NCBI RefSeq assembly: GCF_001020565.1
Contig: NZ_LDAS01000001.1
Location: 968,402 to 1,032,401 of the forward strand
Reading direction: 5' to 3'
Source of the DNA: Maribacter thermophilus
Lineage (GTDB): Bacteria > Bacteroidota > Bacteroidia > Flavobacteriales > Flavobacteriaceae
Length of the DNA stretch: 64,000 bases
In this document: positions 12,753 to 62,558 of the stretch, piece by piece
How positions within the stretch are numbered: position 1 is the first letter of the stretch
How the letters are laid out: every line of letters begins with the position of its first letter
Notes under the pieces: model-generated
Told to the model about the DNA's origin: nothing
Seen by the model: the letters and a program-made list of their open reading frames with translations, nothing else
Database searches by the model: none
Position numbers and translations under genes: made by a program

Positions 12753-13262
12753 TTAATCCAATATATCCAAAGCCCTTGAAAAATCTTCCATGTATAGCCA
12801 ATTATCGGATTGTGTTCGTTCATAAACCTGGATCAACCGCTCTTTGTACTCCGACAACAAATTGTTTTGTGAAATAAAGGTGGTCATCTCCACAAAAGAG
12901 TTTAACATACTTTTGTAAAAAGCATCGGGTACATTTCGTTCAGAGGCGAAGGTTTGTGCAATTTCTAAATTATATAACATAACGTCGGCCACTAAATTAG
13001 GGGCTACACCGAGCTTTATAAAATGTTTTATATACTTCTGGGCTACCGACCGTCTGGCTTTTGGCCTTTTTCGTTTTAACGGAAAATATTCATTGGAGAT
13101 TTTGGTCTTGGCCTCTTGTACCAACTTGTCCTCTTTTGGGTTAAAGGCAAAGTCGTAATATGTCTTTACTGCCGGAAACTTATCGTACAGTTCTATAATC
13201 TGCTCCTGTAATTCTGATTTGTTTAAATCGGACAAGTATGATTTGAGTGCTCTTTTGCTCAT
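12753..13262 (-). CDS. DUF6155 family protein
   Basis: A 169-residue, largely helical and basic protein starting MSKRALKSYLSDLNKSELQE. It matches what I know as DUF6155, a Bacteroidota family with no assigned function. A central KRKRPKARRS patch is strongly basic. No membrane segment or catalytic motif is seen. It probably shares a transcript with the dehydrogenase downstream and is divergent from the sigma factor gene. Confidence 0.7.
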   Translation of the reverse strand: MSKRALKSYLSDLNKSELQEQIIELYDKFPAVKTYYDFAFNPKEDKLVQEAKTKISNEYFPLKRKRPKARRSVAQKYIKHFIKLGVAPNLVADVMLYNLEIAQTFASERNVPDAFYKSMLNSFVEMTTFISQNNLLSEYKERLIQVYERTQSDNWLYMEDFSRALDILD

Positions 13263-13432: not shown

Positions 13433-14296
13433 ATGAGGCAACTAAAGATTATCAAGCAGGTAACCAATAGGGAATCAAAATCTTTGGACAAATACTTGCA
13501 AGATATCAGCAAAATAGACTTAATAACGGCGAATGAAGAAGTTGAATTGGCCCAAAGAATCCGCGAAGGTGATCAAGTTGCTTTGGAAAAATTGACAACC
13601 GCAAACCTAAGGTTTGTTGTTTCTGTAGCTAAACAATATCAAAATCAAGGGTTAAAATTACCCGACTTAATAAATGAAGGAAATCTAGGTTTGGTAAAAG
13701 CGGCGAAACGTTTTGATGAAACCCGTGGTTTTAAGTTTATATCTTATGCCGTTTGGTGGATCAGGCAATCTATTTTACAGGCTTTGGCGGAGCAGTCCAG
13801 GGTAGTGAGGCTTCCTTTGAACAAAATTGGATCCATAAACAAAATTAAAAAGACTTTTTCTTATCTAGAGCAAACACATGAGCGTCCGCCTTCTGCAGAA
13901 GAAATTGCCAAAGAACTGGAAATGACCGTAAGTGAAGTAAAACAGTCATTAAAAAATTCTGGCAGACATGTATCCATGGATGCGCCACTTCGTGAAGGGG
14001 AAGACTCTAATCTATACGACGTATTGCGTTCTGGAGAATCTCCAAAACCGGATAATCACTTGTTGCAACAATCTTTGAATACCGAAATTAATAGGGCGTT
14101 GGAAACATTGTCTCCAAGAGAGGCTGATGTGGTTAAATTGTATTACGGAATCGGTGATCAGCAATCTATGACCTTGGCAGAAATCGGGCACACTTTTGAT
14201 CTTACCAGAGAAAGGGTAAGACAAATTCGTGAAAAAGCGATCCGTAAACTTCGCCATAATTCAAGAAGTAAATTATTAAAGACTTATTTGGGATAA
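13433..14296 (+). CDS. rpoD: Primary RNA polymerase sigma factor (RpoD/SigA type)
   Basis: A 287-residue sigma-70 protein lacking the long N-terminal 1.1 region, as usual for the Bacteroidota housekeeping factor that reads TTTG/TAnnTTTG promoters. Region 1.2 includes SLDKYLQDI. Region 2 has [16 protein letters not shown] and the DNA-melting helix [14 protein letters not shown]. Region 3 follows [10 protein letters not shown]. Region 4.2 is [20 protein letters not shown]. It stands alone, with a strong terminator 24 bases downstream. Confidence 0.95.
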
Positions 14297-14320: not shown

Positions 14321-14355
14321 AAAAGCGCCCCTATTGTTCAATAGGGGCGCTTTTT
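14321..14355. terminator. Strong bidirectional terminator
   Basis: A perfect 15-bp stem (14321-14335 with 14340-14354) with loop GTTC. Runs of T on the plus side and A on the minus side let it stop rpoD on the plus strand and the microprotein unit on the minus strand. Confidence 0.9.
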
Positions 14356-14373
14356 CAATAATGAACACTAAAA

Positions 14374-14475
14374 TTATGAATGAGATAGTTTGTTGATATT
14401 AAAATCAACAAGAATGTTGTTCAAATCCTGAATAAAATTCTGATAAGAGGTATTTTCTTGATTTTGATGCGCCAT
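14374..14475 (-). CDS. Predicted microprotein 1 (33 aa)
   Basis: A 33-codon ORF starting MAHQNQENTS and ending LSHS. Its centre, YQNFIQDLNNIL (11-22), matches the core of the neighbouring 32-codon ORF at 8 of 12 positions. Hydrophobic residues at 11, 14, 15, 18, 21, 22 and 25 give an amphipathic-helix pattern. The 11-mer TTAAAAAATTA ends 4 bases before the ATG and recurs at nearly the same place before the second ORF. It is followed by the terminator at 14321-14355. I do not recognise a family. Being real is inferred from duplication and context, not homology. Confidence 0.6.
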   Translation of the reverse strand: MAHQNQENTSYQNFIQDLNNILVDFNINKLSHS

Positions 14476-14510
14476 GATCTAATTTTTTAAAGGTTTACTA
14501 CCAGGCTAGG

Positions 14511-14609
14511 CTACATATAGTCTAGTTCCGATAATTCGTTTAAGCTTAAAATTTCGTTTAAATCTTGAAGGAACACTAAGTACTCTTCGCCGTAGGTATC
14601 GTAAAGCAT
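14511..14609 (-). CDS. Predicted microprotein 2 (32 aa)
   Basis: A 32-codon ORF starting MLYDTYGEE and ending SELDYM. The core YLVFLQDLNEIL (10-21) is the counterpart of microprotein 1. It is strongly acidic, with eight Asp/Glu and no Lys or Arg, and also patterned as an amphipathic helix. It is the first ORF of the pair; the second starts 35 bases after its stop. TTAAAAAATTA lies 5 bases upstream of the ATG. A promoter at 14662-14692 gives a leader of about 45 bases. Confidence 0.6.
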   Translation of the reverse strand: MLYDTYGEEYLVFLQDLNEILSLNELSELDYM

Positions 14610-14661
14610 ATGGTTAATTTTTTAATAATTGATCTGGGTTAATCACTAACTAAATACAGGA

Positions 14662-14692
14662 TAAATGTAACCATGTAATACTATAGACACAA
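14662..14692 (-). promoter_or_regulatory. Predicted promoter of the microprotein pair
   Basis: On the minus strand, TTG at 14692-14690, a 20-bp spacer, then TACATTTA at 14669-14662 (one mismatch to TAnnTTTG). The predicted start is near 14655. Confidence 0.5.
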
Positions 14693-14701
14693 TTAATTGT
14701 G
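14688..14701. promoter_or_regulatory. Perfect 14-bp palindrome over the -33 element
   Basis: CACAATTAATTGTG is a perfect inverted repeat that covers the TTG of the microprotein promoter. That position suits a repressor site. The binding protein is unknown. Confidence 0.45.
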
Positions 14702-14895
14702 GTGTAGGTGCCCATTTCTGTTGTAAAAAATATGATTGTTATAGGTGAACGATAAAAACTTGCAAAACCATATATTTTATTAGGGTTTCAAGAGTTTTCC
14801 GTTCGTCGATATTACCTGTTTTTCATCGATATTGGACATTGGTGTCTTGTATATGTACAGGCTATGGCCATAAAAACGATTAAAATACCATACGG

Positions 14896-61451: not shown

Positions 61452-62558
61452 TCAGGAAACCAAGTCGATAATTTTAGTGGTTTCCAACCAATTTAAATCT
61501 TCACTTACCAAGCAATCTACCATTTTATGTCCAAAAAAACTATTAGGTTTAAAACCTTTTTTCTCAATTTTAGGCTCAAATACAATTTTATTGTCGCGTA
61601 ACACTTCCTTATATAGTACTCCTATACACTCATCTTTATTCAATGTTTTGTCAATTACAGAAGCATTCAATAATACAATATCAAAATATAGCTTTTTGTT
61701 TTCTGGTATTGCGATGTAATCTTCCACTTTATAATCTGATAAGCTATCTTCCTGTATTGTTTTAATCGCCGTTCGGAGTGCATAATAGATAAACTCCCGA
61801 GTTTTTTCCCTTTCATAATCTTCTTGATAATGTCCGGCCTCAAAAAGTATAGTGGGCGTTTTTTCCATTTGAAAGGCATCACCAATACAATTAGGGTTAA
61901 AAGAGTCATCAAACCTCGCAACTTGTCCAGGAATAATACGCTGTAAGGCATTGTTCATGGCTGCGATTACCTGCATACTTTTTTTACGTGAAGGAGAATT
62001 GTTTCTATCGTAATCAAAAGCCGGCGCCAAAAAAGCCACGGTGGCAGGTTTATCATTTTTACCAACATTAAAGATGGTTCTTTGATCATGTAGATTAAAA
62101 CAAAAATTTGGTCTAAAATCCTTAAATGTCTTTCTGAGAACCAAACTTTCTTTTTGAGTTCGTTTTTGGGCATCCCTATTTAAATCTACCCCATTCGCAT
62201 TAAACCTAGTATAGGCCTGTGCTCCATCAGGATTTAAAATAGGTATAATCTGTAAGGTACATTCGTTCAAAATGGTCTTGGCCTCATCAGAACCCATTCG
62301 AAAGAAATTAAGCAAATCCAAAACTGCTTTTGTAGTGGTAGATTCGTTGCCGTGCATTTGTGACCACATAAATATTTTCTTTTTACCACTACCAACAGTC
62401 AATCCATAAATGGGCAAGCCATTTTCAGATGAACCTATAGTCTGTAAACCAAAAGAATTATCCAATTCATTTAAAAAATCATTTATGTGCGAATTGGTCA
62501 CATAACGCCCAACTACATCTTGGACTTTTACCTGCGAATATTGTGAGTGATCTAACAT
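61452..62558 (-). CDS. M14-family zinc carboxypeptidase-like peptidase
   Basis: A 368-residue protein without signal peptide. The zinc site is MWSQMHGNESTTTKA (His-x-x-Glu) and FCFNLHDQRTIFNVG (second His); the catalytic Glu is probably in PTILFEAGHYQED. The substrate Arg/Asn region NANGVDLNRDAQ is present. It may be a cytoplasmic peptidase or deacylase; the substrate is unknown. The neighbouring Lrp-type regulator may control it. Confidence 0.88.
   Translation of the reverse strand: MLDHSQYSQVKVQDVVGRYVTNSHINDFLNELDNSFGLQTIGSSENGLPIYGLTVGSGKKKIFMWSQMHGNESTTTKAVLDLLNFFRMGSDEAKTILNECTLQIIPILNPDGAQAYTRFNANGVDLNRDAQKRTQKESLVLRKTFKDFRPNFCFNLHDQRTIFNVGKNDKPATVAFLAPAFDYDRNNSPSRKKSMQVIAAMNNALQRIIPGQVARFDDSFNPNCIGDAFQMEKTPTILFEAGHYQEDYEREKTREFIYYALRTAIKTIQEDSLSDYKVEDYIAIPENKKLYFDIVLLNASVIDKTLNKDECIGVLYKEVLRDNKIVFEPKIEKKGFKPNSFFGHKMVDCLVSEDLNWLETTKIIDLVS

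What the first reader, a model, noticed from the sequence alone, without database searches (positions are those of the whole stretch)
14321..14701. Two-gene microprotein operon with its own promoter, operator-like palindrome and terminator
Seen: on the minus strand, two ORFs of 32 and 33 codons lie in tandem (14609-14511 and 14475-14374). Their centres align as YxxF(I/L)QDLNxIL, 8 identities in 12. Both have the identical 11-mer TTAAAAAATTA 4-5 bases before the ATG. Both have hydrophobics spaced as in an amphipathic helix. Upstream is TTG-N20-TACATTTA, with the perfect palindrome CACAATTAATTGTG covering the TTG; downstream is a perfect 15-bp terminator. Inference: a duplicated, regulated microprotein pair of about 335 nt transcript, next to the housekeeping sigma factor and a sensor-less hybrid kinase. 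I know no described family with this core.
Basis: partly seen in the sequence, partly recalled or inferred. Interest (0 to 1): 0.82.

Follow-up and report, generated by a model that had tools for sequence, protein, structure and literature searches.

The report
Conserved microprotein operon with sRNA regulon
Two tiny, previously undescribed bacterial proteins, made from one short operon, are strongly preserved across a group of marine flavobacteria and share their control switch and RNA motifs with a third tiny protein and a family of small RNAs, which hints at an unrecognised regulatory circuit.

Summary
The two ORFs are real genes. A is 32 aa and ATG-started in 80 of 80 loci and B is 33 aa in 73 of 77; within-genus median dN/dS is about 0.03 and 0.05. 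A occurs in 46 of 249 sampled family genomes, normally followed by B, a terminator and convergent rpoD. The B profile detects A, so they are paralogues. No Pfam, NCBIfam, PHROGs, PADLOC or PDB family fits A or B.

The conserved element is a 21-bp-period direct repeat (TTTNACAACA-N12-TNCAC[C/A]ACA) at fixed distance from the -7 box, the layout LytTR regulators use. It recurs elsewhere: 80 sites versus 3 for a control pattern in 13 genomes (12 of the 80 are this operon). It precedes a third microprotein (C) in 22 of 22 C loci picked without it, and ORF-less small RNAs, kinases, two LytTR regulators and surface proteins. C occurs in the same genomes as A+B. A and B leaders and the small RNAs share CCCAAAT and ACCTA(C), rare in ordinary leaders.

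Best reading: a microprotein operon inside a LytTR-type regulon whose small RNAs may titrate an RNA-binding factor. The peptides' partner is unknown; no expression data were available.

The parts
14511..14609 (-). microprotein A gene, 32 aa, MLYDTYGEEYLVFLQDLNEILSLNELSELDYM
   Evidence: 32 aa and ATG in 80 of 80 loci; median within-genus dN/dS 0.03
14374..14475 (-). microprotein B gene, 33 aa, paralogue of A
   Evidence: 33 aa in 73 of 77 loci; B profile detects A
14719..14728 (-). direct repeat 1, TTTTACAACA
   Evidence: 0 mismatches to the operator pattern; ACAAC at 96-100% per column in 121 aligned loci although repeat 1 was not part of the anchoring pattern
14698..14706 (-). direct repeat 2, TACACCACA (21 bp from repeat 1)
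   Evidence: this stretch anchored the alignment
   Evidence: 97-100% per column in 121 aligned loci (part of the anchoring pattern)
14662..14669 (-). -7 box TACATTTA (TAnnTTTA)
   Evidence: 19 nt after TTGT in 111 of the 113 loci in which a box was recognised (8 of 121 had none recognised)
14631..14638 (-). 5' leader motif, here CCCAGATC, a variant of CCCAAATC
   Evidence: CCAAAT in 86 of 125 A leaders versus 23 of 467 generic leaders
14321..14354 (.). terminator hairpin between B and convergent rpoD, perhaps serving both
13433..14296 (+). rpoD/sigA-type sigma factor, convergent neighbour; conserved synteny, functional link not shown

Best explanation
A and B are genuine paralogous helical microproteins translated from one short terminated mRNA. 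Transcription is probably activated by a LytTR-type response regulator bound to a 21-bp-period direct repeat next to the promoter. The operon belongs to a clade-specific regulon that also holds microprotein C, multicopy ORF-less small RNAs, histidine kinases, LytTR regulators and surface/adhesin genes. Shown by sequence: coding constraint, paralogy, promoter module, recurrence of the module (independently confirmed for C), co-occurrence of A, B, C and the small RNAs, shared RNA motifs. Inferred: that a LytTR protein binds the module; that the small RNAs titrate an RNA-binding factor which also binds the CCCAAAUC/ACCUAC motifs in the A and B leaders; that A and B act by binding a strongly conserved cytosolic partner in this circuit (kinase, LytTR regulator or RNA-binding factor) rather than as enzymes or secreted peptides. 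Rough weights: operon and regulon membership 0.95 (raised from 0.9), LytTR 0.7, titration logic 0.3, a partner inside this circuit 0.3.
For: Frame, length and start fixed, dN/dS 0.03 and 0.05. B's stop lies 120-162 nt after A's stop in 45 of 50 loci printed. The B profile hits A in many of the same genomes at E 5e-4 to 0.05 (list cut). Second repeat plus TTGT in 121 of 125 distinct loci at 11 or more of 14 positions, versus 14 of 625 shuffles; repeat 1 and the -7 box then line up without gaps. Module recurs: 80 sites versus 3 control hits in 13 A-B genomes, 12 of the 80 being A-B itself; the -7 box lies at the A-B offset or one base on in 44 of 66 other sites, none recognised in 21, elsewhere in 1. 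Independent test: 22 of 22 C loci found by protein search score 16-18 of 18, versus at most 14 in 220 shuffles, with the -7 box at the same offset or one base on in 21 of 22. LytTR receivers 47 and 114 nt behind two one-mismatch sites. Small RNAs: CCCAAAT 23 times in 16 transcripts versus 0.3 in shuffles, ACCTAC 19 versus 0.8. CCAAAT and ACCTA together in 46 of 125 A leaders versus 0 of 467 generic leaders. C in 45 of 259 genomes, all with A or B; small RNAs at E<=1e-5 in 33 genomes, all C-positive. CCCAAAT is downstream of 28 of 66 sites, upstream of 3, and its reverse complement downstream of 1, so the motif is shared rather than complementary.
Against: No RNA-seq, Ribo-seq or mass spectrometry. 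LytTR genes were found behind only two sites, both in one genome (G285); downstream proteins were mostly read by eye, 11 were scanned. Co-occurrence could be common descent of one clade. 12 of 45 C-positive genomes have no small RNA at E<=1e-5, and 6 of the 33 positive genomes supplied sequences to the model. 39 of 125 A leaders lack CCAAAT, 12 of 22 C leaders too, and the window's own is a variant. ACCTA alone is hardly enriched behind the 66 sites (28 versus 21 upstream). One ORF-less type (L323, L331, L338) lacks the motifs. Solo-A genomes G131 and G150 lack C. AlphaFold2 of a read-through A-B fusion gave pTM 0.28 and mean pLDDT 64, so no evidence of A-B packing.
Confidence: 0.65

Rival explanations
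1. A and B act on the housekeeping sigma factor or RNA polymerase: their operon sits convergent to rpoD in most genomes.
For: rpoD convergent within 1500 nt in 78 of 86 loci, over many genera.
Against: Neighbours on the far side of rpoD (helicase-like, DUF6155) are often kept too, so vertical inheritance of the segment can explain it; A-B loci L069, L100, L166 and L173 and the three solo-A loci have no rpoD hit nearby.
Confidence: 0.15
2. The transcript is mainly a regulatory RNA of the same class as the ORF-less small RNAs, with A and B as add-ons (dual-function sRNA).
For: Same promoter module, leader motifs and terminator design as ORF-less transcripts.
Against: Protein-level constraint is very strong (dN/dS 0.03 and 0.05) while third positions vary: entropy 1.08 (A) and 1.19 (B) bits at position 3 versus 0.15 and 0.46 at position 2.
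Confidence: 0.15
3. The direct-repeat module is bound by another regulator family (or works with an alternative sigma factor), not LytTR.
For: The -7 box is TAnnTTTA rather than the TAnnTTTG reported for sigmaA (PMC9723704, passages); the repeat letters were not matched to a published LytTR consensus.
Against: Two repeats about 12 bp apart just upstream of the promoter is the reported LytTR layout (PMC6193735, passages); LytTR regulators right behind two sites.
Confidence: 0.25
4. Toxin-like pair or secreted signal peptides.
For: Small size, tandem duplication; C is basic and partly hydrophobic.
Against: A has 8 acidic and no basic residues, B 3 and 1; no long hydrophobic stretch visible by eye; widespread through the clade; no phage hit for A (B not searched there); no PADLOC match.
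Confidence: 0.05

Closest known systems
LytTR-type regulons (AgrA, HdrR/BrsR)
   Same: Pair of direct repeats with a gap of about 12 bp just upstream of the promoter; regulator genes themselves behind such sites (PMC6193735, passages).
   Different: Other repeat sequence; flavobacterial TAnnTTT promoter; the regulon is rich in microproteins and ORF-less RNAs.
Gac/Rsm-Csr circuit (RsmY/Z, CsrB)
   Same: Two-component-type control of small RNAs carrying a repeated short motif that also occurs in mRNA leaders (recalled; starts of abstracts seen in the listing).
   Different: GGA is not enriched: 7 versus 13.1 expected; the motif is CCCAAAUC/ACCUAC; microproteins are co-regulated; no CsrA was looked for.
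FopS sRNA family and RbpB of Bacteroides
   Same: Multicopy paralogous sRNAs in Bacteroidota tied to an RNA-binding protein (PMC11697453, passages, one from the abstract).
   Different: Our RNAs have no Rfam match at threshold; FopS sRNAs base-pair with targets, whereas here the motif is shared, not complementary; not compared letter by letter with FopS.
Sda-type helical antikinase microproteins (recalled)
   Same: Small helical regulatory protein; kinases are in the regulon.
   Different: No PDB sequence match for A or B better than E 0.5; interaction untested.

Membership tests
LytTR regulon | two direct repeats (about 9 bp, recalled), 11-13 bp apart | tested here: met
   TTTCACAACA-N12-TTCACAACA, period 21 bp, in A-B loci and 66 other sites; spacing rule from PMC6193735
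LytTR regulon | repeats just upstream of the promoter at fixed distance | tested here: met
   5 nt between repeat 2 and the -33 TTG in the window
LytTR regulon | binding by a LytTR protein | not testable with these tools
   only circumstantial: LytTR genes behind two sites
Gac/Rsm-Csr | repeated GGA (ANGGA) motifs in the small RNAs | tested here: not met
   GGA 7 versus 13.1, ANGGA 1 versus 4.6 in shuffles
Gac/Rsm-Csr | CsrA-type protein | not tested
   no search for CsrA was made
FopS/RbpB | multicopy paralogous sRNAs in one genome | tested here: met
   for example 4 strong matches in G036 and several each in G202, G300, G309; some positive genomes have one
FopS/RbpB | FopS R1 seed and RRM-1 partner | not tested
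   FopS letters were not in the passages read; no RRM search made
known protein families (Pfam, NCBIfam, PHROGs, PADLOC, PDB sequences) | significant profile match of A or B | tested here: not met
   best is PHROG tail assembly chaperone at E 0.11 for A, not significant
known protein families (Pfam, NCBIfam, PADLOC, PDB sequences) | significant profile match of C | tested here: not met
   best E 0.045, seen in 2 of 7 members; PHROGs not searched for C

The most novel reading that the evidence does not exclude
A previously undescribed post-transcriptional circuit in marine flavobacteria, analogous to Gac/Rsm but unrelated in sequence: kinase-LytTR signalling switches on multicopy small RNAs with repeated CCCAAAUC/ACCUAC sites and three microproteins (A, B, C). 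The RNAs titrate an unknown RNA-binding protein that also sits on microprotein and surface-gene leaders, and the microproteins bind and tune the same factor or its kinases, controlling surface adhesion and matrix genes.
Probability: 0.25. Interest if true: 0.88.

Novelty: new variant of a known kind. Interest (0 to 1): 0.76.

Why it matters
It adds two microprotein families (A/B and C) without a match in the curated libraries searched, and a multicopy small-RNA family without an Rfam match at threshold, all joined by one promoter module. Post-transcriptional control in Flavobacteriia is little known; here are named sites, RNAs and peptides that can be deleted, tagged and pulled down directly. 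A 32-residue peptide kept at 71-97% identity over 43 sampled genera implies a conserved binding partner waiting to be found.

Tried and rejected
Palindrome as operator: rejected (4 of 125 loci). Shared 11-mer: rejected. Hybrid kinase as conserved neighbour: rejected. Second genomic copies suggested by three weak DNA matches: they are the start of a gldL-like gene with a similar leader (gldL named from recall), not paralogues. Rfam hits in the A-B region: all far below gathering score. First bipartite operator search had a gap one base too long and was of no use; repeated with the right gap. Homologues outside the clade: nothing convincing in 296 order genomes (best outside the family E 0.003). 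Weak hits in frames of about 360-390 aa in another genus were not followed. AlphaFold2 of fused A-B: uninformative. RNAalifold of the small RNAs: no consensus structure. An MscS label that I first gave some proteins was wrong: they are TPR-HisKA_2 kinases. RNase R as a regulon member is uncertain: the site lies about 560 nt upstream of it, beside a divergent gene in two of the three loci. Literature: no paper found by searches for the A/B core strings, for operator/leader strings together with microprotein or Maribacter, or for flavobacterial microproteins (listings only). Catalogues of small proteins (listed) were not searched and may hold these peptides unnamed.

Selections to know: dN/dS medians use only pairs with finite dS (A 385 of 595, B 303 of 595). 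The E<=1e-5 cut for the small RNAs was set after seeing the table; 16 further genomes matched at 1e-4 to 0.01, 13 of them outside the A-B set. The 16 transcripts are the ones I classed as two ORF-less types; a third type (L323, L331, L338) and the G150 ones were left out, one kept transcript was too long (trimmed), and the motif was first noticed in some of them, so one search is descriptive. One search is more independent; its generic starts are first ATGs, hence rough. 'ORF-less' means no convincing ORF of 25 or more codons; in L342 and L346 an ORF runs on through the terminator. In 8 genomes without A-B (one of them, G056, with a divergent A) one search gave 5 sites versus 2; four of these five and three of the 80 share the string ATCATCCAC[C/T]ACAATA, probably coding (not checked).

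Full report
What was checked. The two minus-strand ORFs, their shared core, the promoter-like string, the palindrome and the hairpin are all present as described.

The genes are real. The 381-base query finds the locus in 35 of 36 genomes of the genus (own one included) and in three further genera at E below 1e-22. A is found at E<=8e-10 in 46 of 249 sampled family genomes, 43 genera. In the GTDB species collection 246 stretches matched the peptide pattern and 242 encode a relative; the best 80 were kept: Maribacter, Arenibacter, Zobellia, Pricia, Muricauda/Allomuricauda/Flagellimonas, Kriegella, Croceivirga, Croceitalea, Poritiphilus, Ulvibacterium, Cerina and unnamed ones. In 80 loci A is always 32 codons from ATG; B was recognised in 77, with 33 codons in 73. 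Median dN/dS within the genus is 0.029 for A and 0.047 for B, on the 385 and 303 of 595 pairs with finite dS. In 296 order genomes nothing outside the family scored better than 0.003.

A and B are paralogues. A profile of B finds B in 70 of 397 family genomes below 1e-11 and finds A in many of the same genomes at 5e-4 to 0.05. Three divergent loci (G131, G150, G056) have an A-like gene without a recognised B, which fits a single ancestor, though loss is not excluded.

Neighbourhood. rpoD lies convergent within 1500 nt in 78 of 86 loci with enough sequence; the kinase of the window is not a conserved neighbour. Upstream neighbours vary and often belong to an operon with kinase, receiver, glycosyltransferase-like and outer-membrane-type genes (labels partly from recall). 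Because genes beyond rpoD are often conserved too, synteny alone does not make rpoD the partner.

The control element. Aligning 121 of 125 distinct loci on the second repeat shows, without gaps, TTTTACAACA before it and TTG(T), 19 bases, TA..TTTA(C) after it; columns inside the anchoring pattern are conserved by construction, repeat 1 and the -7 box are not. The exact pattern CACCACAWTTNNTTGT occurs once in 7 of 10 genomes tested, each time at this operon. The looser two-part pattern, one mismatch allowed, occurs 80 times in 13 A-B genomes against 3 for the reversed control (12 of the 80 are the A-B operon itself); 5 versus 0 in G150, which has a solo A; 5 versus 2 in 8 genomes without A-B. 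In 66 such sites outside A-B the consensus is TTTCACAACA-N12-TTCACAACA, and the -7 box falls at offset 35 or 36 in 44. Published LytTR-regulated operons have two direct repeats mostly 12 bp apart immediately upstream of the promoter (PMC6193735, passages).

What else the module controls. Behind inspected sites (families): microprotein C (33-35 aa, ending like VYRNDFFSGIVLLTKKLFML); ORF-less transcripts with terminator, sometimes in tandem about 300 nt apart; PAS and TPR-HisKA_2 kinases; two LytTR receivers in G285; leucine-rich, collagen-repeat, Ig-like and IgGFc-binding-like proteins; less surely RNase R, about 560 nt away. The own genome has five sites at one mismatch or less: A-B, three ORF-less transcripts (L323, L324, L326) and the RNase R one (L325).

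An independent check. C had been found through the module, so I took 22 C loci found by protein search alone (20 new, plus L364 of the own genome and L366): all 22 have the module within 230 nt upstream at 16-18 of 18 positions, versus at most 14 in 220 shuffles, and 21 of 22 have the -7 box at offset 35 or 36 (four loci missed by the first parser were read in the second). The own genome's C gene lies at G000:C1:2908843-2908932. No Pfam, NCBIfam, PADLOC or PDB family fits C.

Co-occurrence. C is in 45 of 259 family genomes. The 46 A genomes and the 45 C genomes differ only by G131 and G150 (A, no C) and G331 (C; not among the positives, but B-positive). A sequence-only model of the ORF-less RNAs hits 33 genomes at E<=1e-5, all C-positive (6 of them supplied model rows); 12 C-positive genomes have no such hit. 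This is what one circuit would give, but also what descent in one clade would give.

RNA motifs. In 16 ORF-less transcripts CCCAAAT occurs 23 times and ACCTAC 19 times, against 0.3 and 0.8 in shuffles. The leaders of A contain CCAAAT in 86 of 125 and both CCAAAT and ACCTA in 46 of 125; 467 ordinary leaders have 23 and 0. B leaders have CCAAAT in 36 of 122, C leaders in 10 of 22. Downstream of the 66 sites CCCAAAT is in 28, upstream in 3, its reverse complement downstream in 1; ACCTAC 16 versus 3; ACCTA alone 28 versus 21. The same strand of the motif in RNAs and mRNAs argues for a common binder rather than antisense pairing. GGA, the CsrA-type motif (recalled), is not enriched. No Rfam family reaches threshold in 14 of these loci; no consensus secondary structure was found.

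Mechanism. I commit to this: signal -> kinase -> LytTR-type activator -> small RNAs and microproteins A, B, C; the RNAs titrate a factor that binds CCCAAAUC/ACCUAC, and the peptides tune a protein of the circuit. Membership of the operon in a regulon is well supported by sequence, the regulator's identity is likely, the rest is inference. AlphaFold2 on a read-through fusion gives helices (residues 2-37 and 54-69) but no confident packing. A carries 8 acidic and no basic residues, C 5 basic and 2 acidic, so an A-C contact is worth testing.

Place among known things. It works like LytTR regulons at the promoter and perhaps like Gac/Rsm or FopS/RbpB at the RNA level, but it is not filed as a member of the last two: GGA motifs are not enriched, and the FopS seed and RRM partner were not tested.

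Noticed in passing
L273 (two), L330 (two), L333 (two): Tandem ORF-less small-RNA genes about 300 nt apart, each with its own direct-repeat promoter.
   Followed up: partly
L275, L279, L280, L285, L287, L288, L340, L363-L366, L375-L394: Microprotein C, 33-35 aa, basic, C-terminus KLFML nearly invariant; in several loci followed by an acetyltransferase-like gene or a small lipoprotein (labels from recall).
   Followed up: partly
L323, L331, L338: Another short ORF-less transcript type with a conserved string TTTTTCATTTTCATATAGTGTTCTCGTAAAAGAG before the terminator and without the CCAAAT motif.
   Followed up: no
L059, L060, L061: Leader of a gldL-like gene (name recalled) carries ACCAAATC and AAACCT elements like the A-B leader.
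   Followed up: no
L286, L291, L325: A direct-repeat site about 560 nt upstream of an RNase R gene; if real it would tie RNA decay to the regulon.
   Followed up: partly
window 62069-62164 (-): Weak match to the small-RNA model (E 0.0018 in 168 kb); the operator scan of the window shows no site there.
   Followed up: no
window 12753-13262: DUF6155 protein on the other side of rpoD begins with a similar-looking YLSDLNKSEL string; often kept in synteny, likeness not tested.
   Followed up: no
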